Positions 1,171 through 20,317 of a DNA stretch of 28,925 bases are shown here, piece after piece. How positions within the stretch are numbered: position 1 is the stretch's first letter; every line of letters begins with the position of its first letter. Source of the stretch: Fidelibacterota bacterium (GTDB lineage Bacteria > Marinisomatota > Marinisomatia > Marinisomatales > TCS55). The stretch spans positions 1-28,925 of the forward strand of contig SCKQ01000026.1 in the NCBI GenBank assembly GCA_004124535.1. The letters run 5' to 3'. A program made the position numbers and the translations under genes. The notes under the pieces are model-generated. The model was not told the DNA's origin. It ran no database searches and was given only the letters and a program-made list of their open reading frames with translations.

Positions 1171-1593
1171 GTGTATCAAGACTTTTTACCTATAATAATA
1201 TTCACCGTTTTAGCAGCCGTACTCATTGGAGTACCACTTGGGCTGCAATACCTCCTTTCTCCAAGAAAAAATAAAGGCGGCGATAAGCTCATATCCTATG
1301 AATGTGGTGAACTCCCCGAAGGCTCAGCCTGGGTTAAATTCAACATCCGCTTTTATGTCATAGCCCTCGTCTTCCTCATTTTTGATGTTGAAATTGTATT
1401 CCTTTTCCCCTGGGCAGTTGTTTTCCAGGACTTAGGTCTGCTGGCCTTTATTGAAGCCTTCATCTTTGTATTAATTCTGGTTGTGGGATTTATTTATGTC
1501 TGGGCCAAAGGTGATCTTGACTGGGTAAAAATGAATGTCCGCTACGGTAAAGGGCGCTATGCTAATCTACAATCTAAAGGAGAAACAAGCTGA
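1171..1593 (+). CDS. nuoA: NADH-quinone oxidoreductase subunit A (operon 1)
   Basis: A 140-aa membrane subunit of the complex I quinone module, three transmembrane helices. The family signature is clear: the TM1-TM2 loop has YECG with the conserved Cys at 45, followed by [19 protein letters not shown] around 57-75 with acidic D72/E74, and FLFPWA at 78-82. Start is GTG at 1171: the frame has an in-frame TAA at 1123-1125 and no better ATG. The stop overlaps the nuoB1 start by one base (TGATG). The hydrophilic C-terminal tail ([14 protein letters not shown]) is longer than in subunit A of operon 2 (121 aa). It is the first gene of an 11-gene nuoABCDHIJKLMN operon. Confidence 0.95.
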
Positions 1594-2087
1594 TGGATGC
1601 TACGTTATTAGAGAGATTTGACAAGGACAATATTGTAGTTGAAAAATTAGATGACCTTATTAATTGGTCTCGCGCTAATTCACAGTGGTATTTCCAGTTT
1701 GGCCTGGCATGCTGTGCTATTGAAATGATGGCAACAGCTGCCCCTCGTCATGACCTGGAACGCTTTGGCGCCATGCCCAGAGCATCACCCCGGCAGTCTG
1801 ATGTGATGATTGTAGCCGGCACAGTTACTTTAAAAATGGCAGAACGGGTAAAACGATTATTTGAACAAATGTCCGATCCTAAATATGTCATTTCCATGGG
1901 AAGCTGTTCCAATAGTGGGGGTCCTTACTGGCAGTATGGCTACCATGTACTCAAGGGTGTTGATTTAGTAGTACCCGTTGATGTGTATGTCCCTGGTTGT
2001 CCACCCCGTCCTGAAGCGCTTTTACAGGGATTGTTAGAACTCCAGAAGAAAATCAAAACTGAGACTCCCCTCAGGAAGAAGGCCTAA
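1593..2087 (+). CDS. nuoB: NADH-quinone oxidoreductase subunit B, N2 cluster carrier (operon 1)
   Basis: A 164-aa peripheral-arm subunit holding the terminal 4Fe-4S cluster N2, which reduces quinone. All four ligands are visible: tandem C40-C41, C105 (MGSCSNSGG) and C136 (VPGCPPRPE). SPRQSD (65-70) and [13 protein letters not shown] (128-140) are family signatures. The ATG overlaps the nuoA1 stop by one base, so translation is probably coupled. nuoC1 follows after one base. It differs clearly from the NuoB of operon 2 (GSCSNSGG here, GACASTGG there), so the two operons look like separate lineages rather than a recent duplication. Confidence 0.97.
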
Positions 2088-2088
2088 T

Positions 2089-2574
2089 ATGACCTTTGCT
2101 GATATTATAAAATTTCTAGAAACGAAGGCTGCTGGTAAATCCTCCATAATTGAAGGGAAAGAGGTTATTTTGGTCTCACCTGATAATTGGGTTGAAATTT
2201 CCACTTTGCTGAAAAATGAATCTAAACTTGATTTTGATTATCTCATGTGCATCTCCTCCTATGATAAAGGCGATAACAAGACTTATGGTGCAGCCTATAA
2301 TTTATTTTCCACTACCATTAACCACTATTTGGAAGTGAGGGTGGAAACTGAAGACGGCACAGCAATCCCCTCTGTCACCGGCTTATGGCAGGCGGCGGAC
2401 TGGCATGAGCGTGAAGCTTTTGATATGATGGGGCTTCAATTTGAGGGTCATCCCAACTTGAAGAGAATTTTACTATCTGAAGATTGGGATGGGTATCCGC
2501 TGCGGAAAGATTACAAGGAACCGGATTACTATCGTGGTATGCCTGTACCTAAAGACAAAACATATTGGGATTAA
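2089..2574 (+). CDS. nuoC: NADH-quinone oxidoreductase subunit C (operon 1)
   Basis: A 161-aa '30-kDa' subunit of the quinone module. The conserved C-terminal signature is complete: DWHEREAFDMMGLQFEGHPN, then RILL, then GYPLRKDY near residue 150. It is not fused to NuoD. The gene starts one base after the nuoB1 stop and its TAA overlaps the nuoD1 ATG. It has no cofactor; it packs against NuoB, D and I at the base of the peripheral arm. Confidence 0.95.
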   Translation: MTFADIIKFLETKAAGKSSIIEGKEVILVSPDNWVEISTLLKNESKLDFDYLMCISSYDKGDNKTYGAAYNLFSTTINHYLEVRVETEDGTAIPSVTGLWQAADWHEREAFDMMGLQFEGHPNLKRILLSEDWDGYPLRKDYKEPDYYRGMPVPKDKTYWD

Positions 2575-3713
2575 TGGAAGAACAAGCCATAGCTAAATCA
2601 GTGTTGGAAACGGGCGAAATGGTGCTGAATATGGGGCCTCAGCACCCCAGTACTCATGGTGTATTGCGTTTGAAAATTCACACCGATGGAGAAATCGTAT
2701 CCAAAATAGAACCAGTTATTGGTTATCTCCATAGATGTTTTGAAAAACACTGTGAATATTTATCTTATGAGCAAATTGTTCCCTTTACGGACCGTTGCGA
2801 CTATCTTGCATCCATGCACATGGATCATGCCTTTTCAATCGCCGTTGAAAAATTATTGGATGTTGAACTTCCGGAGCGAGTGGAATATATCAGGGTTATC
2901 ATTGCAGAATTACAGCGCATTGCCAGCCACCTGGTTGCCCTGGGTACATTTGGTTTGGATGTAGGCGCAATAACCCCCTTTACCTGGGCCATCCGTGACC
3001 GGGAAAGAATCCTGGATTTATTTGAAGCCCTCTGTGGTGCACGCCTGCTCTATAATTATATCTGGCCTGGTGGTGTATCCCACGATTTACCGCCCAAGTT
3101 TGTAGAGAGAACTCTGGATTTCCTGGATTACTTTGACCCTCAGATTGATGAATTTAATAACCTGTTGAGTACCAATAAAATATTTATTGAACGCACCGGA
3201 GATGTAGGTGTTCTTCCACCGGATGTGGGAATCAATTTCGGTGTTACCGGTCCCAGCCTCCGTGGTAGTGGAGTTAATTGGGATCTGCGAAAAAATGAGC
3301 CATATTCCATTTATGATAAATTTGATTTTGATGTGCCGCTAGGTGAGGGCACAATGGGTACAATAGGGGATACTTGGGATCGTTATTATGTCCGAGTGCT
3401 GGAGATGCGGGAGTCAGCTAAAATTATCCGCCAGGCCTGTGCCCAGCTTCCTGATGGAGATGTGCATGAGGCAATACCGAAAAAGATACGGCCTGCAGTG
3501 GGGGAAGTTTATGGCAGATACGAATCGGCTCGTGGAGATGTAGGTTTTTACATTATCAGTAATGGCAAGAATATTCCGTTGCGAGTGAAAATGCGTTCCC
3601 CGGCATTTTGTAATCTATCAGTCCTCAGTGAAATTGCTGAGGGATGGATGATATCTGATGTCATCGCTATTTTAGGCAGTCTGGATATTGTTCTGGGAGA
3701 AATTGACAGATGA
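2574..3713 (+). CDS. nuoD: NADH-quinone oxidoreductase subunit D, quinone-site subunit (operon 1)
   Basis: About 379 aa with the ATG at 2574, which overlaps the nuoC1 stop as TAATG. A TTG nine bases upstream (2565) is possible but less likely. The family signature MGPQHPSTHGVLR near the N-terminus holds the quinone-head histidine. The DRCDYLASM segment holds the conserved tyrosine of the same pocket, and the protein ends in the typical LGEIDR. The paired nickel-binding cysteines of related [NiFe] hydrogenase large subunits are absent, so this is complex I and not a membrane-bound hydrogenase. The stop overlaps nuoH1 by four bases (ATGA). Confidence 0.95.
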   Translation: MEEQAIAKSVLETGEMVLNMGPQHPSTHGVLRLKIHTDGEIVSKIEPVIGYLHRCFEKHCEYLSYEQIVPFTDRCDYLASMHMDHAFSIAVEKLLDVELPERVEYIRVIIAELQRIASHLVALGTFGLDVGAITPFTWAIRDRERILDLFEALCGARLLYNYIWPGGVSHDLPPKFVERTLDFLDYFDPQIDEFNNLLSTNKIFIERTGDVGVLPPDVGINFGVTGPSLRGSGVNWDLRKNEPYSIYDKFDFDVPLGEGTMGTIGDTWDRYYVRVLEMRESAKIIRQACAQLPDGDVHEAIPKKIRPAVGEVYGRYESARGDVGFYIISNGKNIPLRVKMRSPAFCNLSVLSEIAEGWMISDVIAILGSLDIVLGEIDR

Positions 3714-4810
3714 CATCCATTGTCGATTCATTGGTAAAATCTTTTTCATCCTTTAATCTGGATATAGCAGTTTTGCTGCCAGTTATTACCCTCATAGGCG
3801 GAACCGTAATATTTTTAATTATGGCCGTCAACGCTCTCATAGCTGTCTATTTTGAACGAAAAATATCCGCCTTCATGCAGGACAGGTTAGGTCCCATGGA
3901 AGTGGGAATATTTGGCTTTAAGGGTGGGAAGAAGTTTTGGGGTGGTATTGGCCAAACGCTTGCTGATGCCATAAAGCTATTAGTGAAAGAAGATATTCTC
4001 CCCAATAATGCAGATAAATTCTTAATGATTCTTGCCCCATTTATTATTTTTACAGGAGCATTTCTTACATTTATTGGCCTTCCTTTTGCCCAAAATATTG
4101 TTATTTCAGATTTTAATATAGGTATTTTTTATATTTTTGCCATGAGTTCCATTGGTGTTATCGGTGTCATTCTTGCTGGATGGTCTTCCAATAATAAATG
4201 GTCCTTGTATGGATCTATGCGGGCTGCAGCTCAGATTATTAGTTATGAAATTCCAATTGGTTTGTCTTTGCTTTTAGTTGTGCTTGTAGCTGGAAGTTTA
4301 CATTTAGGTGATATTGTTCAATGGCAGGCTGACCATCGCTGGTTTATTTTTCACAGTCCTTTTACCTTTTTAGCCTTTTTTATTTTCTATATTTCAACAA
4401 TTGCGGAGACCAACCGTACTCCTTTTGATATACCGGAAGCTGAATCAGAATTGGTGGCAGGTTGGATGACGGAATATTCCGGATTCCGATGGGCGCTTTT
4501 CTTTTTGAGTGAGTATGCCAACATGCTTATCGTCAGTATTGTAGCTTCTATTGTATTCCTTGGCGGCTGGTTATCTCCCTTGCAGATATTCAATATTTTC
4601 CCCGATTCCTGGCTTATATTAGATGGCCCGGCAATTGGGTTGTTCTGGGTACTATTTAAAGCAGTTATTCTCATTTTTATTATGATGTGGTTTCGTTGGA
4701 CTTTCCCCCGTTTAAGAGTAGACCAACTCATGTATCTCTGCTGGAAGGTCTTTATTCCATTTGCATTGGCCAATCTATTTTTAGTGAGTTTATGGGAACT
4801 TATTTTTTAA
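3710..4810 (+). CDS. nuoH: NADH-quinone oxidoreductase subunit H (operon 1)
   Basis: A 366-aa membrane subunit that forms the entrance of the quinone chamber and links it to the proton-pumping arm. Signatures: ERKISAFMQDRLGP (49-62), the loop around 175-200 with SMRAAAQIISYEI, AETNRTPFDIPEAESELVAG in the central acidic loop, and YSGFRWALFFLSEYANM after it. Compared with NuoH of operon 2 it has a longer N-terminus and about 10 extra residues just after RLGPMEVG, giving IFGFKGGKKFWGGI before GQTLADAIK. This is the cytoplasmic loop after TM1 near the quinone entry. The next gene begins directly after the stop. Confidence 0.95.
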   Translation: MTSIVDSLVKSFSSFNLDIAVLLPVITLIGGTVIFLIMAVNALIAVYFERKISAFMQDRLGPMEVGIFGFKGGKKFWGGIGQTLADAIKLLVKEDILPNNADKFLMILAPFIIFTGAFLTFIGLPFAQNIVISDFNIGIFYIFAMSSIGVIGVILAGWSSNNKWSLYGSMRAAAQIISYEIPIGLSLLLVVLVAGSLHLGDIVQWQADHRWFIFHSPFTFLAFFIFYISTIAETNRTPFDIPEAESELVAGWMTEYSGFRWALFFLSEYANMLIVSIVASIVFLGGWLSPLQIFNIFPDSWLILDGPAIGLFWVLFKAVILIFIMMWFRWTFPRLRVDQLMYLCWKVFIPFALANLFLVSLWELIF

Positions 4811-6286
4811 ATGAGTGAATATTTTAGCAATATTATATATGGAGTAAAATCATTTCTCACCGGTATGAAACTTACTCTGGATCATTTTAATAATAAGAAG
4901 GAACGGGTTGCCACTCTGCAGTATCCCCATGAAAAGTGGCCCATTCCGGAACGTAATATTGGTTTTGACCATGCGGAGTACAACCTCATCCGCTCCCGGC
5001 TGCACGTTGATATTGATGATTGTATCTCTTGTATGCAATGTGAAAAGTTCTGCCCTGTTGATTGCATCAAAATTGATTTCATAAAGCCTCCCAAGGATAG
5101 TGATGTGGATTGCGGTATCACTTCAAATGATACTCAGAAAAAAATGATTGTGAGCCGTTTTACCATTGACATGTCGGAGTGCATGTACTGCAATCTCTGT
5201 GTTTTCCCTTGCCCTGAAGAATGTATTTATATGGTGGGCGGCCCTAATGCAGAAAAACATGAAATTGATTACGAATTCAGTCAGTATAAACGGGACGGGA
5301 TGATATTTGAGTTTGCCGATGCCACTGATGATATGATCCGTGATGCCGGCGGTGAAAAATGGCTAGAACAGCGGGATGCAAAATTAAAAAAGAATTCTGA
5401 AGGTGTAGAATTAATGGGCATTGTGCCCGAAGCAACTCCAGTGCAAGTTGCCGCGCCTGTGCTAGAAACAGGTACTGCAGCTGCCAAACCAGTTACTGCT
5501 GTAAAACCCCTCGGTGGTGAGTTTGATATCAAGTCCTTAAATGGCATTGCTGATAAAATGTGCCGGGGTATCGCCAAAAAAGCCTTTATGGCTGCCAAGC
5601 GTGCCGGTAAAGATACAACCGCTATTTTGGCTGATGTGGCTCAGGCTCTTAGTGATGCCGGAAAAATGACTGAAGATATCCAGTCTATTTTAGATGGATT
5701 ATCAGCGCCATCACCAGAAGCAGTTACGCCAGTAGTGGAAACAGAGGGAGCTACTAAAGCGGAAAGTGTTGCTGAAGTTCCACCAACTACAGAAGTAAAA
5801 GAATTTGATATCAAAGATTTAAATGTTATTGAAGATAAAATGGCCAGAGGGACTGCTAAAAAAGCATTCCTTGCTGCTAAACGATCTGGTGAAGATAAAG
5901 TTGAGGCTGTCCGTAAAGCGCTTGGCGATGCTGGGAAATTAGATGTAGCTGCTGAAAAATTGCTAAATTCATTTACCAGTGCTGCCGCAGAACCTTCCCA
6001 GCCTACTGCTGTGGAAAAAACAGCCGAACCCACTGAAGAAGCTGCAGCAGAATCGCTAGCCGCATCAGAGCCTGCAGAAGATTTGCCACTGTTTGAGATT
6101 GCTGAACTGAATGGTATTGATGATAAGATGACTCGAGGCATGGCCAAGAAAATCTATATGGCAGGGAAGAGGGCTGACAAATCAAGAACAGAAGTCATTG
6201 CTGATCTCCGTGCTGGTTTAACAGAGGCTGGCAAATTGGATGATGCCACAGCTGCAATTCTCAATAATCTGGAGAGTGGAAATTAA
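4811..6286 (+). CDS. nuoI: NADH-quinone oxidoreductase subunit I with a three-repeat C-terminal extension (operon 1)
   Basis: The first ~195 residues are a normal NuoI carrying clusters N6a and N6b: C71, C74, C77, C81 and C124, C127, C130, C134. The N-terminal amphipathic part sits on the membrane. Ordinary NuoI is about 150-200 aa, while this protein is 491 aa. After an Ala/Pro linker (205-237) come three homologous domains at about 238-297, 332-388 and 428-487, separated by Ala/Pro/Glu/Thr-rich linkers. The shared pattern is F-[DE]-I-x2-L-N-x-I-x-D-K-M-x-R-G-x-A-K-K, then A-x-K-R, then AGK[ML], then L-x2-[LF]. Each unit looks like a small helical bundle with a basic middle. I do not recognise the domain. 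The reading frame is intact and the nuoJ1 start overlaps its stop, so it is a real part of the gene. The extension's function is unknown; it may dock an electron donor or regulate assembly. Confidence 0.93.
   Translation: MSEYFSNIIYGVKSFLTGMKLTLDHFNNKKERVATLQYPHEKWPIPERNIGFDHAEYNLIRSRLHVDIDDCISCMQCEKFCPVDCIKIDFIKPPKDSDVDCGITSNDTQKKMIVSRFTIDMSECMYCNLCVFPCPEECIYMVGGPNAEKHEIDYEFSQYKRDGMIFEFADATDDMIRDAGGEKWLEQRDAKLKKNSEGVELMGIVPEATPVQVAAPVLETGTAAAKPVTAVKPLGGEFDIKSLNGIADKMCRGIAKKAFMAAKRAGKDTTAILADVAQALSDAGKMTEDIQSILDGLSAPSPEAVTPVVETEGATKAESVAEVPPTTEVKEFDIKDLNVIEDKMARGTAKKAFLAAKRSGEDKVEAVRKALGDAGKLDVAAEKLLNSFTSAAAEPSQPTAVEKTAEPTEEAAAESLAASEPAEDLPLFEIAELNGIDDKMTRGMAKKIYMAGKRADKSRTEVIADLRAGLTEAGKLDDATAAILNNLESGN
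5522..6271 (+). repeat. Three diverged coding repeats in nuoI1
   Basis: Units at about 5522-5701, 5804-5974 and 6092-6271, encoding residues 238-297, 332-388 and 428-487 of NuoI1. Positions shared by all three include L-N-x-I-x-D-K-M-x-R-G-x-A-K-K, A-x-K-R and A-G-K. The DNA has diverged while the protein pattern holds, which suggests the repeats are old and selected. Linkers (5702-5803, 5975-6091) are Ala/Pro/Glu-rich. Confidence 0.9.
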
Positions 6287-6771
6287 TGGCTGAGAACCTC
6301 TTTTTAATCATCGCTGCTTTGGTTATTGCATCTGCTTTCTGGGTAGTATTCTCGCCAAATTTAATTCATTCTGCTGTATCATTATTATTCACCCTCTTTA
6401 GTACCGCCGGATTATATATTTTTCTCTATGCAGATTTTATCGCTGCTACCCAGGTTGTGATTTATGTTGGAGGCATTCTGGTCTTGATAATTTTTGGTGT
6501 AATGCTCACCAACCGCATTGATACCCCCAGCATAGCTGCCAGCAGCAAGAACCAGTTTATTGGCGGCATGGGGGCATTTTCAATTTTTGTCATACAGGTA
6601 TCCGTTATTTTTAATACCCCTTGGCATATTGGTACTGAGCAAAGTCGGGATTCCACTGTAGCCAGTATTGGCTATCTATTATTAAACGAATACCTGCTGC
6701 CCTTTGAAATTATTTCAATTTTACTGTTGGCAGCCCTCATGGGCGCAGCCTTATTATCGAGGCGCACCTAA
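6286..6771 (+). CDS. nuoJ: NADH-quinone oxidoreductase subunit J (operon 1)
   Basis: A 161-aa subunit with five predicted transmembrane helices, placed between NuoH and NuoK in the membrane arm. The family core is visible: NLIHSAVSLLFTLFSTAGLYIFL, then ADFIAATQVVIYVGG with the conserved TM3 segment that carries the pi-bulge in solved structures, then ILVLIIFGVML. The ATG overlaps the nuoI1 stop and the TAA overlaps the nuoK1 ATG (TAATG). Confidence 0.95.
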   Translation: MAENLFLIIAALVIASAFWVVFSPNLIHSAVSLLFTLFSTAGLYIFLYADFIAATQVVIYVGGILVLIIFGVMLTNRIDTPSIAASSKNQFIGGMGAFSIFVIQVSVIFNTPWHIGTEQSRDSTVASIGYLLLNEYLLPFEIISILLLAALMGAALLSRRT

Positions 6772-7079
6772 TGGATTCCTTACAATCCTATCTCATTATT
6801 GCAGCAATATTATTTTCCATGGGAATATACGGTGTCATCACCCGGAAAAATGCAGTGGCTATCCTCATGGGGATTGAACTGATTCTTAATTCCGCCAATA
6901 TCAATTTTATCGCATTTAACCGTTTTGGCGGAATGACCAATTTAGACGGTCATGTATTCAGTATATTTGTTATTGTTTTGGCTGCAGCCGAAGCGGCAGT
7001 TGCGCTGGCAATTGTCATAAATTTATTTAAAAATGTTGGCAGCGTTGATGTAGATGATGCTGATCTTCTAAAGGGATAA
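6771..7079 (+). CDS. nuoK: NADH-quinone oxidoreductase subunit K (operon 1)
   Basis: A 102-aa, three-helix subunit homologous to MrpC. The two membrane glutamates needed for proton transfer are present at E36 (MGIELILNSANI) and E74 (LAAAEAAVALAI). Translationally coupled to nuoJ1 by TAATG overlap; nuoL1 follows after two bases. Confidence 0.96.
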   Translation: MDSLQSYLIIAAILFSMGIYGVITRKNAVAILMGIELILNSANINFIAFNRFGGMTNLDGHVFSIFVIVLAAAEAAVALAIVINLFKNVGSVDVDDADLLKG

Positions 7080-7081
7080 TT

Positions 7082-9142
7082 ATGGATAATTATTCTACAA
7101 CTCTGGCTTTACTTAATTTGTTTTTACCGCTCTTATCCTTTGTGATTCTCATATTTTTTGGCAAGAAAATTGGCAATTCTGCCCATTGGGTAGCCTTAGC
7201 CCTGATTGGCGGTTCGCTGGGTATCGCCGTGAGTTTTTTCGCCAATGTATTCGTAGATACAGGCCAGCCAATTTTAGAAACATCCGTCCGCTGGTTTAGT
7301 ACCGGAAGTTTCAGCGTAAACCTGGGTTTTCTTATCAATAATGAAGCAGCAATTATGCTTTTGGTAGTGGCTCTTATATCCTTTCTGGTGCATTTTTATT
7401 CGGTGGGCTACATGAAAGGCGATCCTCGGTATTCACGTTATTTTGCATATTTGGGAATATTTACCTTTTCTATGAACGGCATTGTACTGGCTGATAATCT
7501 CATAATGATGTACATATTTTGGGAATTGGTTGGCTTAAGCTCTTATCTTTTAATTGGCTTCTGGTTTGAAAAAAACAGCGCTGCTGATGCCTGCAAAAAA
7601 GCCTTCCTCACCAACAGGGTAGGGGATATCGGCATGTTCATCGGCATCATGATTCTTTTCTTCAGCATCGGTACTTTCCAGATTGATGGATTAATTGAGG
7701 GTGTTCGCAATGGCGCTTTTGCCGGGAATATGAGTCTCTTGACCATTGCAGGGATTTTGGTATTTATGGGTGCAGTAGGTAAATCTGCCCAGTTTCCCCT
7801 GCATATTTGGCTGCCGGATGCCATGGAAGGCCCTACGCCAGTCAGCGCCCTAATCCATGCGGCAACTATGGTAGCAGCCGGGGTGTATATGGTGGTGCGG
7901 ATTTTCCCAATACTGACACCAGGGGCATTAGAAATTATTGCAGTGGTAGGGGGAATTACCGCAATCATGGCGGCTATCATCGCTATCACTCAAAATGACA
8001 TCAAGCGCGTATTGGCATACTCTACGGTGAGCCAGTTGGGATATATGATTATGGCTCTTGGGGTTGGCGCATATCAAGCCGGATTCTTCCATTTAACCAC
8101 TCATGCCATGTTTAAAGCCTGCCTCTTTTTATGCAGTGGCTCTGTAATCCATGCCATGCACCATGCTCTCCATGAACTTAATGACCATGAAACTGATCCT
8201 CAGGATATGAACAATATGGGTGGATTGCGTGATAAAATGCCCATAACCTTCTGGACAATGCTCATTGCTACTCTGGCTATTTCGGGTGTACCCTTCTTCT
8301 CCGGCTTTTTATCTAAGGATGCAATCTTGGCCGGTACTTTATCTTATTACCATTTACACCATGGTTGGACGCTCTTTCTGCCCATTGCCGGATTTGGCGC
8401 CGCAGTCATTACGGCTTTTTATATGTTCCGCTTAATCTTCCTCACCTTTTTTGGCAAGCCTGCCAATGATAAAGTTTATGCCCATATCCATGAATCACCT
8501 TTCCAGATGACCTTTCCCCTCATTCTGCTGGCAGGATTGAGTTTCGCTATATTCTTTACGGTGCCGTTTTCTGTTAATCCTCTGGATAACCACGGCTGGT
8601 TTACTGAGGCAGTCCCCATGATAGAAAATGTGGCTGGATTGGATATGCATGCGGTTGAGGAGGGAATTCATCATGCCCATTATACAGCCATGGGAATTTC
8701 TTTGACCGTAGCAACTATTGGTATTCTGCTGGCTATTCTCTTTTATCTCTTAAGAAAAGTGGATGCGGCTAAAATAGCGGGCATGGCAAATAAATTAAAG
8801 CTCTACAATCTTTCTTTTAACAAATTCTATATTGATGAAATTTACAATATCATTATTTACAAACCCTTCTTGGCACTATCCTGGTTATGCTCAAAACTTG
8901 ATTGGGATGTTTATGATCAGAAATTTATAGATGGCTGGGGCTGGCTCACTATCAAACTTTCGGATAAATCCGCCGAGGTAGATTATAACTGGCTGGATCA
9001 AAAAGTGGTGGACGGACTTGGGAAAATTACTCAATATTTTGGTAAGACTTTGAAATCAACTCAAAATGGTGTGGTGCAGAACTACCTCCTTGGCGGAATG
9101 TTGGGAGCTTTGCTACTCATTATTTTAATTCAACAATTTTAA
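7082..9142 (+). CDS. nuoL: NADH-quinone oxidoreductase subunit L, with duplicated lateral-helix segment (operon 1)
   Basis: A 686-aa distal antiporter-like proton pump. Key residues are visible: TM5 E148 (FWELVGLSSYLLIGFW), TM7 K234 (GAVGKSAQFPLHIWLPDAM), PTPVSALIHAATM at 251-263, and TM12 region K412 (FLSKDAIL). The first ~555 residues form the antiporter core. After it comes NKFYIDEIYN and the long lateral helix that ties L, M and N together, ending in a last transmembrane helix at about 668-685. The lateral helix holds two copies of a motif D-Q-K-[FV]-[IV]-D-G-x-G-x2-T, at 612-623 and 639-650, spaced exactly 27 residues. Most NuoL proteins have one such block, so the helix should be about 27 residues longer than normal. 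Histidine-rich MHHALHELNDHE at 359-370 is a common NuoL loop. Confidence 0.95.
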   Translation: MDNYSTTLALLNLFLPLLSFVILIFFGKKIGNSAHWVALALIGGSLGIAVSFFANVFVDTGQPILETSVRWFSTGSFSVNLGFLINNEAAIMLLVVALISFLVHFYSVGYMKGDPRYSRYFAYLGIFTFSMNGIVLADNLIMMYIFWELVGLSSYLLIGFWFEKNSAADACKKAFLTNRVGDIGMFIGIMILFFSIGTFQIDGLIEGVRNGAFAGNMSLLTIAGILVFMGAVGKSAQFPLHIWLPDAMEGPTPVSALIHAATMVAAGVYMVVRIFPILTPGALEIIAVVGGITAIMAAIIAITQNDIKRVLAYSTVSQLGYMIMALGVGAYQAGFFHLTTHAMFKACLFLCSGSVIHAMHHALHELNDHETDPQDMNNMGGLRDKMPITFWTMLIATLAISGVPFFSGFLSKDAILAGTLSYYHLHHGWTLFLPIAGFGAAVITAFYMFRLIFLTFFGKPANDKVYAHIHESPFQMTFPLILLAGLSFAIFFTVPFSVNPLDNHGWFTEAVPMIENVAGLDMHAVEEGIHHAHYTAMGISLTVATIGILLAILFYLLRKVDAAKIAGMANKLKLYNLSFNKFYIDEIYNIIIYKPFLALSWLCSKLDWDVYDQKFIDGWGWLTIKLSDKSAEVDYNWLDQKVVDGLGKITQYFGKTLKSTQNGVVQNYLLGGMLGALLLIILIQQF
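8897..9055 (+). repeat. 27-residue tandem duplication in the NuoL1 lateral helix
   Basis: Residues 606-632 and 633-658 of NuoL1 align at an offset of 27. Identical pairs include D607/D634, D612/D639, Q613/Q640, K614/K641, D617/D644, G618/G645, G620/G647 and T623/T650, with conservative pairs between them. The DNA copies have diverged, so this is an old, selected duplication. Confidence 0.8.
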
Positions 9143-9154
9143 TTAGAGGATAAT

Positions 9155-10726
9155 ATGGAATCGTCAATACTCACCTTGTTGATATTTGTACCCGTAGCCG
9201 GAGCAGTTTTAATGCTGCCTTTTGCTATGTTGTACGGAAAAGAAAATGCCCATTATTATAAATGGATTGCTGCAATTACAACCGGTATTCAGCTGGTCCT
9301 GGCCGGTATATTATATCTTAATTTTGATCCCGCCCTAAGCGTTACTGAATCACCATTTACCGTACAATTGAATTGGATTACACATTTTAACATCCAGTAT
9401 TATTTAGGCGTGGATGGTTTAAGCATACCCATGGTTTTATTAACAGCTCTCTTGTCTTTTATCTGCATCATTTCCAGCTGGAAAATTGATAAACAGCCAT
9501 TAGGTTACTTTTCTCTTTTTCTCCTATTGGATGCTGGAATGATGGGTGTGTTTTTATCTCTGGATTTCTTCCTCTTTTACATATTCTGGGAAGTCATGCT
9601 GCTGCCCATGTATTTTCTCATCGGTATTTGGGGCGGACCACAGCGAATGTATGCTGCCATTAAGTTCTTCCTCTATACCTTATTTGGATCCGTATTTATG
9701 CTTCTAGCATTGCTGGCATTGTATTATTACTCCGATCCGCATACATTCAGTCTTATTACACTTATTCATACAGTAGGCAGTATTGATGCCACTATCTGGG
9801 GTTTAAGCGTTAAATATCTCATTTGGATGTCCCTGTTTATTGGGTTTGCCATAAAAGTTCCCATTGTTCCCTTTCATACCTGGCTGCCCCTTGCGCATGT
9901 GGAGGCGCCCACAGCCATTTCAGTCATCCTTGCGGGTGTATTGTTGAAAATGGGTACCTATGGACTCCTGCGAATCAGTTACCCCTTGCTGCCGGGTGAG
10001 GTGGTAAACTTTGCCTATATTCTGGCAGTGCTGGGAGTAATTAACATAATCTGGGGCGCTACCAATGCCATTGCCCAAATTGACATGAAGAAGATGGTTG
10101 CCTATTCCTCTGTGAGTCATATGGGCTACGTGCTATTGGGAATGGCTGCTGCCATCAGTGACAGCCCTGCCGGTGCCCAAGCTGGAATGAATGGCGCTCT
10201 CATGCAGATGTTTAACCATGGAACCATTACGGCAATGTTGTTTTTGCTGGTTGGCATGTTATATGATAGAGCTCATCATCGTTGGATAGTATTCCCCAAT
10301 GATTATGAAAAGCCGGAATTAGCCGGCCAGCAGGGATTTGGCGGATTAGGTGCTAAGGTTCCGGTTTATACAGCTTTTGTGGCCTTTGCATTTTTTGCTG
10401 GACTTGGGCTGCCAGCCCTTTCAGGCTTTATCAGTGAAGCCATGTGTTTTATCGGCGGTTTCAGTGTTTTCCGCACCTTAACCATTATTGGTACTTTAGG
10501 GATTCTGCTGAATGCTATTTACTTTTTACGAGCCTATCAGAGAATCTTCCTGGGACCACTTAATGAAACCTATAAAGATTTAACGGATATCAGCCACCGG
10601 GAGCTGTTTACCTTAATTCCATTGGCAGTACTCATTTTATTCTTAGGGGTCTATCCAGCGCCATTATTGGATATGATCAGCCCGGCAATGGATGGAATCA
10701 TTAAAATCGTACAATCCGTAATTTAA
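9155..10726 (+). CDS. nuoM: NADH-quinone oxidoreductase subunit M (operon 1)
   Basis: A 523-aa antiporter-like pump of the membrane arm. Essential residues: TM5 E146 (FWEVMLLPMYFLIGIWGG), TM7 K234 (FAIKVPIVPFHTWLP), TM8 K265 (GVLLKMGTYGLLRI), and the TM12 acidic residue E428 (GFISEAM) that marks NuoM rather than L or N. The 12-base gap after nuoL1 contains an AGAGGA Shine-Dalgarno. A loop of about 25 residues between 374 and 398 is longer than in NuoM of operon 2. Confidence 0.95.
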   Translation: MESSILTLLIFVPVAGAVLMLPFAMLYGKENAHYYKWIAAITTGIQLVLAGILYLNFDPALSVTESPFTVQLNWITHFNIQYYLGVDGLSIPMVLLTALLSFICIISSWKIDKQPLGYFSLFLLLDAGMMGVFLSLDFFLFYIFWEVMLLPMYFLIGIWGGPQRMYAAIKFFLYTLFGSVFMLLALLALYYYSDPHTFSLITLIHTVGSIDATIWGLSVKYLIWMSLFIGFAIKVPIVPFHTWLPLAHVEAPTAISVILAGVLLKMGTYGLLRISYPLLPGEVVNFAYILAVLGVINIIWGATNAIAQIDMKKMVAYSSVSHMGYVLLGMAAAISDSPAGAQAGMNGALMQMFNHGTITAMLFLLVGMLYDRAHHRWIVFPNDYEKPELAGQQGFGGLGAKVPVYTAFVAFAFFAGLGLPALSGFISEAMCFIGGFSVFRTLTIIGTLGILLNAIYFLRAYQRIFLGPLNETYKDLTDISHRELFTLIPLAVLILFLGVYPAPLLDMISPAMDGIIKIVQSVI

Positions 10727-10737
10727 CGGAGACGGAA

Positions 10738-12204
10738 ATGTCGAACCTCAGCAGTCTAACATATTATATTCCCGAACTGATTATTATTTCAGCTATTTTG
10801 CTGGTGATCGTATTGGATGTAATTCCTGCTTGTAAGAAATATACCTTCTCTCTATCCCTTGGCGCTATACTATTGGCAAGTGTTTTCCTCTGGCAGAGTT
10901 ATGGTGAATCTCATGGTTTGTTTATGGGGATGATCAGTATTGACCCTTTTTCTCATTTTTTTAAAATGATATTTTTGCTTAGTACTTTTTCCATTATTCT
11001 CATATCCCGTTATGAAAAACAGTTAGACAAAAATTATTCAGCTGAATATAATGCCCTGCTGTTAATCGTTCTGCTGGGCATGTTTCTCATGTCATCCTCA
11101 ATCAACCTGATAATGATTTATCTCTCGATTGAGTTGGTGAGTATTCCATCGTATATACTGGCAGGAATGCTGAAGAATGATAAAGAATCCAATGAAGCAT
11201 CACTGAAATATGTAATTTTCGGCTCCTTTGCTTCCGGCTTAATGTTGTTTGGACTGAGCATCCTTTACGGTATCACCGGCTCAACCGATATTGGAGTAAT
11301 TACCGCCGCACTGCAAGCCATTGAATACCCTTTAAGCATTTACTTCCCACTTATATTATTACTGGTGGGATTTGGGTATAAAATCTCCATGGTGCCCTTC
11401 CATTTTTGGACGCCGGATGTGTATGAAGGCGCACCCACGCCCATTACCGCCTTTTTATCTGTAGCGCCAAAGGCTGCGGGGTTTGCTATTTTGATAAGGG
11501 TATTCTATACCATGTTCACCATTGATGGCAGCGTAACCGCCACCTTGCCCCTTACCAATATAAATTGGCCAGCACTCATTGCAGTAGCCTCAGCCATAAC
11601 CATGACCCTGGGCAACCTGCTGGCAGTTCAGCAGGAAGATGTAAAGAGATTGCTGGCGTATTCCACTATTTCACATGTAGGCTTTATGTTGATGGCATTT
11701 GCCATAATCAGCCCTGACGCAGTACGCGCTATCATGCTGTACCTTTTTATTTACCTCTTTATGAATCTCGCCGCCTTTTACATGGCTATATTTGCCTCCA
11801 ATAAACTTAATGCCCATCATATTAACGATTGGGATGGGTTAAGCAGGAAAAACCCGGTTCTATGTGCCTTCATGGCGCTCACACTAATTTCCCTTACCGG
11901 TTTGCCGCCAACGGCCGGGTTTGTAGGAAAATTTTATATCTTTGCTGAGTTATTTAAACATCAACAATTCTACTGGCTGGCTGTGGTTGCCATTTTAAAT
12001 TCAGTGGTCTCGCTGTACTATTATTTTAAAATTGTCAAAAGTATGTACCTAGTCGATGTAGAAGGTGAGGTAAATAAAATTGAAGCTCACCCGGTTGTAA
12101 ATTGGTCTATTATTTTATTTTCTTCCCAAAACCTCCTATTTTTTCTTTATTGGGAACCCCTCATCGGTTTTATTGAAAAATCTATAAATCTCTGGAAAGG
12201 ATAA
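10738..12204 (+). CDS. nuoN: NADH-quinone oxidoreductase subunit N (operon 1)
   Basis: A 488-aa antiporter-like pump next to NuoK. Key residues: TM5 E132 (YLSIELVSIPSYILAG), TM7 K215 (GFGYKISMVPFHFWTPDVYEGAP), K245 (SVAPKAAGFA), and a lysine late in the core (GFVGKFYIF). GGAGACGG precedes the ATG. It is the last nuo gene of operon 1, but the thioesterase gene starts only 7 bases downstream, so transcription probably continues. Confidence 0.95.
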   Translation: MSNLSSLTYYIPELIIISAILLVIVLDVIPACKKYTFSLSLGAILLASVFLWQSYGESHGLFMGMISIDPFSHFFKMIFLLSTFSIILISRYEKQLDKNYSAEYNALLLIVLLGMFLMSSSINLIMIYLSIELVSIPSYILAGMLKNDKESNEASLKYVIFGSFASGLMLFGLSILYGITGSTDIGVITAALQAIEYPLSIYFPLILLLVGFGYKISMVPFHFWTPDVYEGAPTPITAFLSVAPKAAGFAILIRVFYTMFTIDGSVTATLPLTNINWPALIAVASAITMTLGNLLAVQQEDVKRLLAYSTISHVGFMLMAFAIISPDAVRAIMLYLFIYLFMNLAAFYMAIFASNKLNAHHINDWDGLSRKNPVLCAFMALTLISLTGLPPTAGFVGKFYIFAELFKHQQFYWLAVVAILNSVVSLYYYFKIVKSMYLVDVEGEVNKIEAHPVVNWSIILFSSQNLLFFLYWEPLIGFIEKSINLWKG

Positions 12205-12211: not shown

Positions 12212-12688
12212 ATGGAAACAAAAGCTCTCAAGGATACCCAAGTCATTATGCATGAGTTGGTTCTCCCTAATGATACCAATTTATTAGGTAATGTACTGGG
12301 TGGCAGGGTTATGCATCTTATGGATATGTGTGCCGCCATGTCTGCCTACAAACATGCCCGTACCGCAGTTGTCACCGCCAGTGTAGATCAATTGGATTTT
12401 CTGGCCCCGGTAAAAATGGGTGATATCATGATATTAAAATCCTCGGTGAATTATACCGGTAAATCTTCTATGGAAGTGGGGGTGCGGATTGAATCTGAAA
12501 ATCCCAAAACCGGTGCTATCTACCACACTTCTTCTGCCTACCTGACCTTTGTTTCCTTAAATGACAATGGCAAACCCCAGGGAGTTCCAATGGTAACTCC
12601 TGAAACAGATGTGGAAAAACAGCGCTTTGAGGAAGGTAGGGTACGCCATGAAGAGCGTAAACGGAGATTGAGAAAAGATAATAAATGA
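12212..12688 (+). CDS. Acyl-CoA thioesterase, hotdog fold (YciA/YkhA-type)
   Basis: A 158-aa single hotdog domain. The catalytic signature is present: N27 and the Gly-Gly turn in LLGNVLGGRVMHLMD, with D38, followed by the HARTAVVTASVDQLDF strand and the VKMGD motif at 67-71. Enzymes of this family hydrolyse acyl-CoA to free fatty acid and CoA in the cytoplasm; the chain-length preference cannot be told from sequence. The C-terminal ~30 residues are charged (EKQRFEEGRVRHEERKRR) and probably helical. A strong GGAAAGGA lies in the end of nuoN1, 10 bases before the ATG. The gene sits between two nuo operons on the same strand with 7 and 22 bases on either side, so it is probably cotranscribed with operon 1, operon 2 or both. 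No link to complex I is known to me. Confidence 0.9.
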   Translation: METKALKDTQVIMHELVLPNDTNLLGNVLGGRVMHLMDMCAAMSAYKHARTAVVTASVDQLDFLAPVKMGDIMILKSSVNYTGKSSMEVGVRIESENPKTGAIYHTSSAYLTFVSLNDNGKPQGVPMVTPETDVEKQRFEEGRVRHEERKRRLRKDNK

Positions 12689-12710
12689 GTTTTAAGAGTA
12701 AAATTATAAT

Positions 12711-13076: not shown

Positions 13077-13181
13077 CCTACCTAAATTTAAGCTTATTCT
13101 TATAAGGCAGATTAAGACATTTGAATAACATGTGTATGGACACACATTAAACTGTACAGACACAAATAACGGAGACAAGAT
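13077..13181 (+). promoter_or_regulatory. nuoA2-nuoB2 intergenic region with small palindromes
   Basis: 105 bases without a gene inside operon 2. It contains ATGTGT-atggac-ACACAT (13130-13147), an 8-base perfect palindrome CTGTACAG (13152-13159), and a good Shine-Dalgarno GGAGA (13171-13175) before the nuoB2 ATG. An internal promoter, operator or RNA processing site is possible; no clear promoter hexamers were seen. Confidence 0.3.
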
Positions 13182-15388: not shown

Positions 15389-15431
15389 ACTCCAAGAGTA
15401 TGAAAAGTTTATTTTTGCCAATCAGGATAAA

Positions 15432-15869
15432 GTGGATAGAATATTTTCCCAATATCCGGATAAGAAATCAGCCACATTATCTCTACTGCATTTAGCGCAG
15501 GCGCATGAAGGATATATTTCTGGGAGCGTCATTGATACCATTGCTGACTTGGTAGAATGTCACCCTGCAATTGTCATGGATTGTGTTTCCTTTTATAGTA
15601 TGTTCTTTACTAAACCTCAAGGCCGCCATAAAATTCAAGTTTGCCAAACACTTTCCTGCAGCGTTAATGGAGCTGATGCGTTAGTTGATCATGTAACCAA
15701 TAAATTTAGTATCAAACCCGGTGAAACGACCGATGATAAACGGTTTACACTCATGAAAGTAGAATGTCTTGGCTCCTGCGGCACAGCGCCGGTAGTACAG
15801 ATCAATAACGATTATCATGAGGGGTTAACCAATGAAAGGTTTAATGAATTGCTGGAGTCTCTGCCATGA
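15432..15869 (+). CDS. nuoE: NADH-quinone oxidoreductase subunit E, 2Fe-2S protein (operon 2)
   Basis: A 145-aa thioredoxin-like ferredoxin subunit carrying cluster N1a. Ligands: C71 and C76 (CQTLSC), C112 and C116 (ECLGSC). The N-terminal YPDKKSATLSLLHLAQ helix is typical. The start is a GTG at 15432 with AGGA at 15424-15427, four bases upstream. The frame stays open upstream to a TAG at 15348 and codes there for a plausible NuoE-like helix (ELQEYEKFIFANQDK), but that stretch has no ATG, GTG or TTG; only an ATT at 15411 could extend it. Together with NuoF it makes the NADH-oxidising head. The stop overlaps nuoF2 by ATGA. Confidence 0.93.
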   Translation: MDRIFSQYPDKKSATLSLLHLAQAHEGYISGSVIDTIADLVECHPAIVMDCVSFYSMFFTKPQGRHKIQVCQTLSCSVNGADALVDHVTNKFSIKPGETTDDKRFTLMKVECLGSCGTAPVVQINNDYHEGLTNERFNELLESLP

Positions 15870-17164
15870 ACGCTTTTAAACCTGTCCTGACGGAACATAT
15901 TCATCAGAAAGACTGTCATACACTCCCCTTTTACAAAAGTGTCGGAGGATATAAGGCTTTAGAAAAAGTGCTTGCTATGCAACCTGACGCTGTTATTCAG
16001 GAAGTGAAAGAGTCCAACCTGCGCGGCAGGGGTGGCGCTGGATTTTCCACCGGGGTGAAATGGGGCTTTATTCCCAAAGATAGTGATCAACCAAAATACC
16101 TAATTAACAATGCCGATGAAAGTGAACCGGGTACTTTTAAGGATAGACTATTGATGAATAAAACTCCTCATCAGATGTTGGAAGGGATGATTATTGCATC
16201 CTATGCTATTAACTGCAATACAGCCTTCATTTACATACGGGGAGAATTCTATAAAGAATATCAGTTGTTGAAGGAAACATTAGCTGAAGCATATCAAGCC
16301 AACCTATTAGGCCAGGGGATTTTTGGCTCAGATTACAATCTGGACGTTGTTATTCATCGCGGCGCTGGAGCTTATATTTGCGGTGAAGAGACGGGATTGA
16401 TTGAATCCCTGGAAGGTAAACGGGGCTGGCCAAGAATAAAACCACCCTTTCCTGCCATCGAAGGTTATTTGCACTGTCCAACGGTGGTAAATAATGTTGA
16501 AACCCTTGCCTGTCTTCCCCATATCATTAATCACGGAGCTGACTGGTTTAAATCTATCGGATCCGAAAAAGGTCCCGGACCGAGACTTTTCTGTGTATCA
16601 GGCACGGTAAACAATCCCGGAGTTTTTGAAGAACCTATGGGCATCTCCCTTAAAGAATTGATTTTTGACAGAGCTGGTGGTATTCCAGAGAATAAGCAAT
16701 TAAAAGCTGTTTTTCCCGGCGGATCATCATCGGCAATTCTCACTGCGGAGGAAGCATTGGACGTAAAAATGGATTTTGAGGACCTGGTAGAAAAAAAGAG
16801 CATGCTGGGTTCCGCAGGAGTCATTGTTATGGATGAAACCGTGGATATGGTGCAGGCATGCCTCAATATCGCCCGATTCTACGCCCATGAATCTTGTGGA
16901 CAATGTACCCCCTGCCGGGAAGGAACTGCCTGGCTTGTAAAAATGCTTACTCGTATAGTCAATGGGCAGGGTAAGCCGGATGATATTGATATGCTGTATG
17001 AGATCACGGATAACATAGGCGGTCGCATTGATTTTTCAAAAGGCAGTTTTGGAAAGACGATTTGCCCCTTTGGAGAAGCAGTAGCCTGGCCCGTTCGCAG
17101 TTTTGTAGAAAAATTTGAAGATGAATTCCGCAGCTATATACAGCAGCTGGAGGCAGTCGCATAA
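15866..17164 (+). CDS. nuoF: NADH-quinone oxidoreductase subunit F, NADH/FMN site (operon 2)
   Basis: A 432-aa catalytic subunit that oxidises NADH through FMN and cluster N3. FMN/NADH motifs: RGRGGAGFSTGVKWGF (53-68), NNADESEPGTFKDR (81-94) and the glycine-rich GAGAYICGEETGLIESLEGK (166-185). N3 ligands: C344, C347, C350 (ESCGQCTPCREG) and C400 (TICPFG). Length is normal for the family. It is found only in operon 2, so this is the only recognisable NADH-binding module in the window. Confidence 0.97.
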   Translation: MNAFKPVLTEHIHQKDCHTLPFYKSVGGYKALEKVLAMQPDAVIQEVKESNLRGRGGAGFSTGVKWGFIPKDSDQPKYLINNADESEPGTFKDRLLMNKTPHQMLEGMIIASYAINCNTAFIYIRGEFYKEYQLLKETLAEAYQANLLGQGIFGSDYNLDVVIHRGAGAYICGEETGLIESLEGKRGWPRIKPPFPAIEGYLHCPTVVNNVETLACLPHIINHGADWFKSIGSEKGPGPRLFCVSGTVNNPGVFEEPMGISLKELIFDRAGGIPENKQLKAVFPGGSSSAILTAEEALDVKMDFEDLVEKKSMLGSAGVIVMDETVDMVQACLNIARFYAHESCGQCTPCREGTAWLVKMLTRIVNGQGKPDDIDMLYEITDNIGGRIDFSKGSFGKTICPFGEAVAWPVRSFVEKFEDEFRSYIQQLEAVA

Positions 17165-18741
17165 TGCCACTTTTGAAAATTGATGATTTAGAGATAGAGG
17201 TAAAAAATGGTACGACTGTTTTGGAAGCTGCCTTAAAAAATGGGATTGATATTCCCTATTATTGCTACCATCCAGCCCTGGAAATCGTAGGAAGCTGCCG
17301 GATGTGCCTGGTACAGGTAGAAGGGATGCCTAAACTGCAGGTATCATGCAACACGTTTGTTGGAGAAGTTCCCCCGGAGCGGAAAGTTGACGGCAATTTT
17401 GATATGGTAGTGCAGACACAGAACGACCTTGTTATACAGGAAAGAAAAAACATACTTGAATTTCTTCTTTTAAACCATCCCCTTGATTGTCCTGTATGCG
17501 ACCAGGCTGGAGAATGTTATCTTCAGGACTACTCCTTCAAATTTGGAAACGCCCATAGTAGATTCGATGAGGATAAAAGAGTACGTCCCAATGAATATCT
17601 GGGGTCGCAAATTGTCATTAACCACAACCGCTGTATCTTATGCAGTCGTTGTACACGTTTCACTCGCGAAATCTCGGGAACCAGTGAATTATTTGTGGAT
17701 GAACGTGGTTACAGCTCAAAAATAGCAGCACTGGAAGATCGGCCCCTTAATAATCTTTTAGCCGGTAATGTGGCGGATATTTGTCCGGTAGGTGCACTTT
17801 TAAGTACAGACTATGTTCACAAGAATCGCATCTGGAACCTGCAAAAAAAGTCTTCTGTATGCCAGGATTGCAGTGTGGGCTGCAACATTGATGCCTTCTA
17901 TCAGAAGCGGAAAATATTCCGATTAAATCCCAGGGAGAACCAGGATGTAAATGGTTACTTTATGTGTGATATAGGCCGCTATGGATTCCACCGATTTGAA
18001 GATTTAGAACGGGTAGCTCGACCCCTGTTCAAATCTAATGGAATATTCAGTGAAATAAGCTGGGATACAGCAATTGAAAAGATAAGTGATAAGTTTAATG
18101 GCGCTGAAGAAAAAGTTGCGGGTGTTGTATCTCCTTTTCACACCAATGAAACAAATTTTATGCTTGGGCGCCTCATAAAAGGAATTATTGGAACCTTCCC
18201 TCACATTGAAGACGAAGAGATAACGTACCCATCCGGCTTCCGAATTAGTAGCGACCGCTCCCCTAATAAGCGGGGTATGCATGATGTTTGTCCATCAATT
18301 GTGGATGATCTTGCTTCGGAAATCAATGATAAGGAAATCCGGGTGATATATATACTCGATAACGAGATCGATAAAGAAATAGATGAAACCTGGAATAAAA
18401 TATTAACGAAAATGGATTTTATCGTCGTTCAGGCTTACGCTATGACGAGGTTGGCGAAATCCGCACACCTTATACTTCCTGGGCTTGCCCCTTTTGAACG
18501 GGAGGGAACGATCACTAATGATCAAGGCCGTGTTCAATGGCTGCGGTCTGTGTTACCCAATAATGGAGAATCCCGCCCTGATTGGGAAATTCTGAATTTA
18601 CTATATAAAACCGGTGAGCGTTTTTCTGATATCAATGAGCTAATGAAAGGGATGGGGGAACAGTTTCCATCTTATTCTGGCATGACTTTTTTTAAATTGG
18701 GAGATCAGGGACTTCCGCTAAATGGAAACTTAAAAACTTAA
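17164..18741 (+). CDS. nuoG: NADH-quinone oxidoreductase subunit G, short form (operon 2)
   Basis: A 525-aa electron-wire subunit. Four Fe-S sites are visible: 2Fe-2S N1b (C34, C45, C48, C62), the His-ligated N5 (H105, C109, C112, C118), N4 (C157, C160, C163, C207) and the off-path N7 (C233, C236, C240, C268). N7 occurs in E. coli and Thermus but is lost in mitochondria. The molybdopterin-like domain that follows (from about 285) is much shorter than in the usual 780-900-aa bacterial NuoG; it keeps the segment HLILPGLAPFEREGTITNDQGRVQW and ends near 525. The frame is clean and the TAA overlaps the nuoH2 ATG, so this is a natural short form, not a broken gene. No molybdenum cofactor ligand is expected. 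Confidence 0.94.
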   Translation: MPLLKIDDLEIEVKNGTTVLEAALKNGIDIPYYCYHPALEIVGSCRMCLVQVEGMPKLQVSCNTFVGEVPPERKVDGNFDMVVQTQNDLVIQERKNILEFLLLNHPLDCPVCDQAGECYLQDYSFKFGNAHSRFDEDKRVRPNEYLGSQIVINHNRCILCSRCTRFTREISGTSELFVDERGYSSKIAALEDRPLNNLLAGNVADICPVGALLSTDYVHKNRIWNLQKKSSVCQDCSVGCNIDAFYQKRKIFRLNPRENQDVNGYFMCDIGRYGFHRFEDLERVARPLFKSNGIFSEISWDTAIEKISDKFNGAEEKVAGVVSPFHTNETNFMLGRLIKGIIGTFPHIEDEEITYPSGFRISSDRSPNKRGMHDVCPSIVDDLASEINDKEIRVIYILDNEIDKEIDETWNKILTKMDFIVVQAYAMTRLAKSAHLILPGLAPFEREGTITNDQGRVQWLRSVLPNNGESRPDWEILNLLYKTGERFSDINELMKGMGEQFPSYSGMTFFKLGDQGLPLNGNLKT

Positions 18742-19769: not shown

Positions 19770-19774
19770 AAATA

Positions 19775-20290: not shown

Positions 20291-20317
20291 AATTGATCCC
20301 AGATTAGTTACTAATTG

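What the first reader, a model, noticed from the sequence alone, without database searches (positions are those of the whole stretch)
5400..6286. NuoI of operon 1 carries three copies of an unrecognised helical domain on flexible linkers
NuoI is normally about 150-200 aa with two 4Fe-4S clusters. Here the clusters (C71-C81, C124-C134) are followed by nearly 300 extra residues: three homologous units (about 238-297, 332-388, 428-487) with consensus L-N-x-I-x-D-K-M-x-R-G-x-A-K-K ... A-x-K-R ... A-G-K, separated by Ala/Pro/Glu linkers. The layout recalls the swinging-arm design of dehydrogenase E2 proteins. Operon 1 has no NADH module (E, F, G), and NuoI lies at the point where that module would attach. 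My hypothesis is that the repeats dock an alternative electron donor (for example ferredoxin) or another partner enzyme.
Basis: partly seen in the sequence, partly recalled or inferred. Interest (0 to 1): 0.78.

Follow-up and report, generated by a model that had tools for sequence, protein, structure and literature searches.

The report
Repeat docking arm on ferredoxin-type complex I
A respiratory enzyme of uncultured marine bacteria that lacks its usual NADH-reading part carries, at the subunit where electrons enter, a flexible tail with three copies of an undescribed small helical domain; in relatives flavodoxin, an electron-carrier protein, is fused in the same place, which suggests how this enzyme may be fed.

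Summary
The NuoI gene at 4811-6286 encodes a ~200-residue two-cluster ferredoxin core plus three homologous ~60-residue units (238-298, 332-389, 428-488) on disordered linkers. A unit is predicted as a confident four-helix domain (pLDDT 93.8), matches no Pfam family or natural PDB protein convincingly, and is under strong purifying selection. The window is Candidatus Neomarinimicrobiota (SAR406).

In the loci read, Nuo subunits bear units only in EFG-less operons: C-terminal on NuoI (1-5 copies) in some families, N-terminal on NuoC (1-2) in others, never both. None of nine EFG-containing operons has them. Ten NuoI protein clusters carry one or two flavodoxin domains in the same tail, three of them followed by a unit, so units and an electron carrier share one arm.

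The unit is not complex-I-specific: a shorter form (shared core helix) sits on an SRPBCC-like protein, in one family beside cytochrome bc and oxidase-assembly genes, and a long unit on one Cys-rich protein.

I read it as a docking module that, on complex I, most likely recruits the low-potential electron carrier or its reductase. The partner is inferred, not shown. My searches found no printed description.

The parts
1171..4810 (+). nuoA, B, C, D, H of operon 1 (EFG-less complex I)
   Evidence: Pfam hits PF00507, PF01058, PF00329, PF00346, PF00146; no E, F, G homologue between them
4811..5410 (+). NuoI core, residues 1-200
   Evidence: best NCBIfam model TIGR01971 NuoI, 65.3 bits, below its curated cut-off of 113.05; Fer4 hits; lies between nuoH and nuoJ
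5021..5053 (+). first 4Fe-4S motif, C71-C74-C77-C81
   Evidence: translation; C74, C77, C81 invariant and C71 nearly invariant in the 56-sequence alignment
5180..5212 (+). second 4Fe-4S motif, C124-C127-C130-C134
   Evidence: translation; invariant in the 56-sequence alignment
5411..5521 (+). linker 0, residues 201-237
   Evidence: 68% A/P/E/T/S/V; pLDDT under 50 for residues 207-236
5522..5704 (+). unit 1, residues 238-298
   Evidence: profile and pairwise scores; four-helix model pLDDT 93.8
5705..5803 (+). linker 1, residues 299-331
   Evidence: 91% A/P/E/T/S/V, net charge -5; disordered in model
5804..5977 (+). unit 2, residues 332-389
5978..6091 (+). linker 2, residues 390-427
   Evidence: 84% A/P/E/T/S/V, net charge -8; disordered in model
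6092..6274 (+). unit 3, residues 428-488; the class that follows the flavodoxins in three fused relatives
6286..12204 (+). nuoJ, K, L, M, N of operon 1
   Evidence: Pfam PF00499, PF00420, PF00361; NCBIfam L, M, N
15432..18741 (+). nuoE, F, G of operon 2 (comparison: NADH module present)
   Evidence: Pfam PF01257, PF01512, PF00384
19697..20290 (+). NuoI of operon 2 (comparison: 197 aa, no unit)

Best explanation
The repeated unit is a small, independently folding docking module. On the EFG-less (11-subunit) complex I it is hung, on flexible Ala/Pro/Glu linkers, from a subunit of the electron-input arm: NuoI (window and relatives) or NuoC (other families). There it most likely recruits the soluble low-potential electron carrier (ferredoxin; flavodoxin in some species) or the enzyme that reduces it, raising its local concentration next to the first NuoI cluster. 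Shown here: the repeat, its predicted fold, selection, restriction to EFG-less operons in the loci read, modularity, and the sharing of one arm with flavodoxin domains. Inferred: that the unit binds a partner, that the partner is a carrier or its reductase, and that the conserved D-x3-R-x3-K-x6-K-R face is the contact.
For: Units on Nuo subunits in 32 of 58 EFG-less loci read (19 on NuoI, 13 on NuoC; none on both, both genes being readable in 53); 0 of 8 fetched EFG operons and not operon 2. Ten NuoI clusters (P0123-P0132) carry one or two flavodoxins in the tail (best 120 of 417 hits listed); three (P0125, P0126, P0132) also end in a unit, unit-3-like in 30 of 30 best matches each. The fused domain is a full long-chain flavodoxin (PF00258 1.4e-43; PDB 2mok 1.1e-43). 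Beads-on-string model: units pLDDT about 85-92, linkers about 30. Units dN/dS about 0.08, linkers about 0.39, window against L033. R15, K19, K20 invariant in A1; R, K, K invariant at the positions of R15, K19, K26 in A2. [quoted passage not shown] POR_N, a domain of oxidoreductases that reduce ferredoxin, matches in 30 of 30 genomes tested, 29 over cut-off. Getz et al. suggested flavodoxin as donor for this complex because the NADH subunits are missing (PMC6143742, passages).
Against: Units also occur on an SRPBCC-like protein, and one on a Cys-rich protein, with no known link to ferredoxin; in the f3, f4 and f9 genomes read the unit is on the SRPBCC-like protein only. 25 of 58 EFG-less loci have no unit. 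No flavodoxin match was reported for the window's genus label g28 (43 of 244 phylum genomes matched at E 1e-6, none of them g28), so there the partner would have to be something else, such as ferredoxin. Net charge of the window units is small (+1, +2, -1), so they are not strongly basic overall. Seven of the ten flavodoxin-fused clusters lack a unit, so the two need not work together.
Confidence: 0.45

Rival explanations
1. Respiratory clustering module: the unit binds a common scaffold or anchors respiratory proteins to one another (a prokaryotic respirasome tether), bringing complex I near an SRPBCC-like (perhaps quinone- or lipid-handling) protein and the cytochrome bc complex, rather than catching an electron donor.
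For: The same core is on NuoC or NuoI and on an SRPBCC-like protein with 2-4 copies in those read. In family f8 that gene lies between oxidase-assembly genes (DUF420, UbiA, SCO1, COX15) and Rieske, cytochrome b and cytochrome c genes (L095). Several f1 and f8 genomes have both bearers (e.g. G091, G103, G141).
Against: In f1 and f3 the SRPBCC-like gene has unrelated neighbours. In the f15-f17 genomes the short-unit profile matched only at NuoI, so no unit-bearing SRPBCC-like protein was seen there. It does not explain the shared arm with flavodoxin or the absence from EFG operons.
Confidence: 0.25
2. Homotypic assembly: units bind each other, clustering several copies of the complex or joining unit-bearing proteins directly.
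For: Units carry both conserved acidic (D11) and basic (R15, K19, K26) residues; copy number varies from 1 to 5 as in multivalent assembly modules.
Against: No direct test; single-copy versions exist on NuoC and on NuoI, which would give little multivalency.
Confidence: 0.12
3. Binding to RNA, DNA, ribosomes or anionic lipid through the basic helix, serving location in the cell.
For: Invariant Arg/Lys on helix 2.
Against: Median net charge only +1 (A1) to +3 (A2) per unit; no consistent resemblance to known families, nucleic-acid-binding ones included. It does not explain restriction to EFG-less complexes.
Confidence: 0.1
4. Neutral decoration without function, spread by recombination.
For: Copy number and place vary, and many EFG-less complexes lack it.
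Against: Units evolve under much stronger purifying selection than the linkers between them; the motif is kept across families.
Confidence: 0.03

Closest known systems
[quoted passage not shown] 2018, PMC6143742; D. hafniense enzyme, PMC11238625)
   Same: Complex I lacking NADH-module subunits; Getz et al. already noted it in this phylum and suggested flavodoxin as possible donor (passages).
   Different: The passages read do not mention a repeat tail, a unit on NuoC, or a NuoI-flavodoxin fusion; the search for Marinimicrobia with NuoI found no paper.
Cyanobacterial NDH-1 with ferredoxin-docking subunits (NdhV, NdhO; NdhS as foothold) (PMC7021789)
   Same: EFG-less complex I; ferredoxin binds at the NdhI apex, helped by Lys/Arg of small accessory proteins (passages).
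   Different: There separate, non-repeated subunits do it; here a covalent multi-copy tail with no detected sequence relation.
E2 subunit of 2-oxoacid dehydrogenases (lipoyl domain, linker, peripheral subunit-binding domain)
   Same: Beads on Ala/Pro-rich linkers; in P0125, P0126 and P0132 a carrier domain and a small helical domain share the arm, as lipoyl and binding domains do.
   Different: No sequence match to a binding-domain family; fold relation not established; no lipoyl domain. The E2 layout itself is recalled, not from a call.
Campylobacter complex I fed by flavodoxin (Weerakoon and Olson 2008, seen only as cited in PMC11238625 and PMC6143742)
   Same: Flavodoxin instead of NADH as donor to a complex I.
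   Different: There flavodoxin is, as recalled, a separate protein; here it is fused to NuoI in relatives of the window.

Membership tests
11-subunit (EFG-less) complex I | nuoABCDHIJKLMN in one operon, no nuoE, F, G | tested here: met
11-subunit (EFG-less) complex I | electron donor other than NADH | not testable with these tools
   inferred from absence of E, F, G and from flavodoxin fusions in relatives
NuoI (TIGR01971) | two 4Fe-4S ligand sets and place between nuoH and nuoJ | tested here: met
NuoI (TIGR01971) | score above the curated cut-off | tested here: not met
   65.3 bits against 113.05: best model, but a divergent NuoI-like subunit; naming rests on synteny and ligands
E2 peripheral subunit-binding domain | sequence match of the unit to that family (or any Pfam family) | tested here: not met
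   no family at E up to 10 for the three window units; over 27 units no family matched more than 2, best E 0.0023, none of them this one
E2 peripheral subunit-binding domain | same fold | tested here: inconclusive
E2-like swinging arm (layout) | folded beads on disordered linkers | tested here: met
   units pLDDT about 85-92, linkers about 30
Cyanobacterial ferredoxin-docking subunits NdhS, NdhV, NdhO | sequence match of the unit | tested here: not met
   no Pfam or PDB sequence match of the tail at E up to 10
Flavodoxin (domain fused in relatives, not in the window) | full-length flavodoxin homology | tested here: met
   PF00258 1.4e-43; PDB 2mok 1.1e-43 over query residues 9-175
Flavodoxin (domain fused in relatives, not in the window) | binds FMN | not testable with these tools
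   needs protein

The most novel reading that the evidence does not exclude
Complex I of these bacteria has replaced the NADH module by a modular swinging arm. A new family of docking domains, exchangeable with tethered flavodoxins, captures and hands over low-potential electrons, a redox counterpart of the lipoyl arm of E2; the same domain may mark other respiratory proteins for one electron-transfer assembly.
Probability: 0.3. Interest if true: 0.85.

Novelty: new variant of a known kind. Interest (0 to 1): 0.7.

Why it matters
Which protein feeds the 11-subunit complex I is stated as an open question in PMC11238625 (passages). NuoI-flavodoxin fusions are natural evidence that a low-potential carrier works at this site in at least one lineage. 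The repeat module gives a short, expressible bait (about 60 residues) to fish out the partner in an uncultured marine phylum. It would also be a multivalent, tethered way of feeding complex I.

Tried and rejected

Full-length NuoI prediction: the Fe-S core failed (pLDDT about 30-50, pTM 0.22), so no claim is made about how the tail packs on the core.

Outside the phylum: 392 relatives of G041 were searched with A1 (59 matched); the phylum search covered 245 genomes, so at least about 147 of the 392 should lie outside it. One outside match, G255 at 7.3e-4, partial (17-60), treated as noise. The short form (A2) was not searched outside the phylum.

Standalone unit proteins: the short frames of G236 and G237 turned out to be NuoI tails at contig ends.

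Flavodoxin presence does not track unit presence across genomes (by eye), so the idea that the partner is always flavodoxin was dropped.

One search was given the wrong half of the Cys-rich protein (minus strand) and is not used; it only re-found NuoI units.

The query-built profile scores were replaced by shuffles.

Full report
What is there. The window (28,925 bases) holds two nuo operons. Operon 1 (1171-12204) is nuoABCD-H-I-JKLMN without E, F, G; operon 2 (12711-27789) has E, F and G. Where a source names the organism of a close match to the NuoI protein, it is Candidatus Marinimicrobia / Neomarinimicrobiota, and G221, family label f15, genus label g28, encodes an identical NuoI core (180 of 180 residues). 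NuoI of operon 1 is 491 aa. Residues 1-200 hold both cluster ligand sets; the rest is three units at 238-298, 332-389 and 428-488 with linkers of 33-38 residues rich in A, P, E, T, S and V. Units match each other far above shuffles (z 17.7, 20.5 and 24.3 with 1000 shuffles each).

The unit. Alone, with 18 aligned units, it is predicted as helices 3-8, 12-27, 32-45 and 51-60, mean pLDDT 93.8, pTM 0.79. In the full protein the units are at pLDDT about 85-92 and the linkers near 30, i.e. beads on a string. No Pfam family at E up to 10 for the three window units, no PDB sequence for the tail, no Pfam family matched by more than 2 of 27 units, and no convincing fold match. The profile of 27 units does hit designed helical-repeat proteins of the PDB, best 2.3e-10; these align to about positions 30-61 and I take them as compositional. 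In 27 diverse long units R15, K19 and K20 are invariant and N7, D11, G16 and K26 nearly so. Between the window and L033, dN/dS is about 0.03 for the core, 0.08 for units and 0.39 for linkers (0.017/0.54, 0.048/0.64 and 0.263/0.67). Against L034 and L036 dN is 0.086 and 0.084 in units, 0.48 and 0.50 in linkers; against L035, the most diverged, it is 0.19 against 0.65, with dS saturated.

Distribution. With the long-unit profile 25 of 149 phylum genomes match, with the short-unit profile 50 of 149. The two profiles align over 30 core columns, hhalign probability 97.8, E 1e-12. Bearers are: (a) NuoI C-terminus of EFG-less operons; (b) NuoC N-terminus of EFG-less operons in families f1 and f8; (c) an SRPBCC-like protein with a tail of 2-4 short units, in f1, f3, f4, f8 and f9. 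The f1 protein hits Polyketide_cyc2 at 4.2e-4, below the Pfam cut-off, and the N-terminal parts of seven members from the five families are related to each other by phmmer; (d) one 233-aa Cys-rich protein in G122, whose unit found only itself and an 81% relative among 30 candidates. I read 58 loci of the operon-1 type, chosen to cover families rather than at random: units on NuoI in 19, on NuoC in 13, flavodoxins on NuoI in 1, none in 25. nuoD and nuoH adjoin, so that E, F and G are missing there, in 57 of 58; L174 starts inside nuoH. In five loci one of the two genes is off the contig or not found (L144 with units; L158, L174, L175, L176 among the 25). No locus has units on both. Copy number over the 219 proteins collected by the three protein searches is 3 in 175, 2 in 24, 1 in 8, 0 in 8, 4 in 2 and 5 in 2; the collection is biased because the queries had units or flavodoxins, and it includes fragments. 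In eight fetched operons with E, F, G the NuoI is 167-219 aa without a unit (L227-L234), and the same holds for operon 2. A search of 392 relatives of G041, reaching beyond the 245 phylum genomes, gave one weak partial match outside the phylum.

Flavodoxin on the same arm. This is not a single-assembly accident: ten protein clusters (P0123-P0132, 421-736 aa) show NuoI followed by one or two flavodoxins. Three of them (P0125, P0126, P0132) end in a helical unit after the flavodoxin(s), and that unit resembles unit 3 of three-unit relatives in 30 of 30 best matches each. So the arm reads NuoI-U1-U2-U3 in most of the collected proteins, NuoI-F(-F)-U3 in three, and NuoI-F-F or NuoI-F in seven. The fused domain is a complete long-chain flavodoxin by homology. 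Free flavodoxins related to it account for most of the matches in 43 of 244 phylum genomes, none of them labelled g28.

Mechanism. [quoted passage not shown] The donor of 11-subunit complexes is called an open question in PMC11238625 (passages), and Getz et al. suggested flavodoxin for the Marinimicrobia complex because NADH subunits are missing (PMC6143742, passages). POR_N, found in oxidoreductases that reduce ferredoxin, matches in 30 of 30 genomes tested, 29 over the cut-off. The fusions put a carrier where the units are, so I take the arm to be an electron-input arm and the unit a docking module for the carrier or its reductase (confidence 0.45). The step from 'same arm' to 'binds the carrier' is inference.

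What speaks against it. The short units on the SRPBCC-like protein need another account. In f8 that gene lies between DUF420, UbiA, SCO1 and COX15 on one side and HEAT, Rieske, cytochrome b and cytochrome c genes on the other (L095; L094 shows a similar arrangement of ORF lengths). In f1 and f3 its neighbours are unrelated. A common scaffold or respiratory clustering is therefore the main rival (0.25). Overall charge of the window units is only +1, +2 and -1, so simple electrostatic capture is not strongly indicated.

Novelty. Searches for Marinimicrobia with NuoI (no paper), NuoI with C-terminal extension and related terms, flavodoxin with fused and NuoI, Marinimicrobia with ferredoxin and complex I, Marinimicrobia with flavodoxin and 'flavodoxin domain' with the full subunit name (no paper) gave no listing whose title or abstract start describes the units or the fusion. 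Only listings were seen except for the three papers read in passages. The library holds open-licence papers only.

Noticed in passing
window 21237-24749: Operon 2 has two MrpD-type antiporter proteins (NF006236 702 bits and NF009310 708 bits) with an 80-aa ORF between them where NuoL would be, then NuoM and NuoN; the same order recurs in L231 (G069), while six other operon-2 loci have a NuoL-like protein (L232 is cut off before that point).
   Followed up: partly
window 12212-13076, compared with L033-L036 and L101: After operon 1 and a 4HBT thioesterase gene the window continues with the EFG-containing nuo operon, whereas the close relative L035 has NqrA, NqrB and an FMN-binding (NqrC-like) gene there, and L033, L034, L036 and L101 have ORFs of similar lengths.
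   Followed up: partly
window 132-1046 and operon-1 loci: A proline dehydrogenase gene lies divergently upstream of nuoA in the window; a homologue is present in 37 of the 49 read loci that reach nuoA, across families.
   Followed up: partly
L095:8530-9831, L094:9022-10527: Unit-bearing SRPBCC-like protein, in L095 between cytochrome oxidase assembly genes and cytochrome bc genes; the f1 form begins with an apparent transmembrane helix (by eye), the f8 form does not.
   Followed up: partly
L085:9534-10235 (-): 233-aa Cys-rich protein of unknown family with one long unit at its C-terminus, found in G122 and an 81% relative only.
   Followed up: partly
L001 (G001:C113): G001 belongs to family f1, yet contig C113 carries a window-type NuoI identical over the core, besides an f1-type operon on C52; the contig is probably a stray from an f15 organism in that assembly.
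   Followed up: no
L041: Record is titled Flavobacteriaceae but carries a Marinimicrobia-type operon-1 stretch with a unit on NuoI; probably mislabelled.
   Followed up: no
L053, L054: NuoI of EFG-less operons with long low-complexity tails (299 and 347 aa) and no recognisable unit or other domain; L161 (304 aa) may be similar.
   Followed up: no
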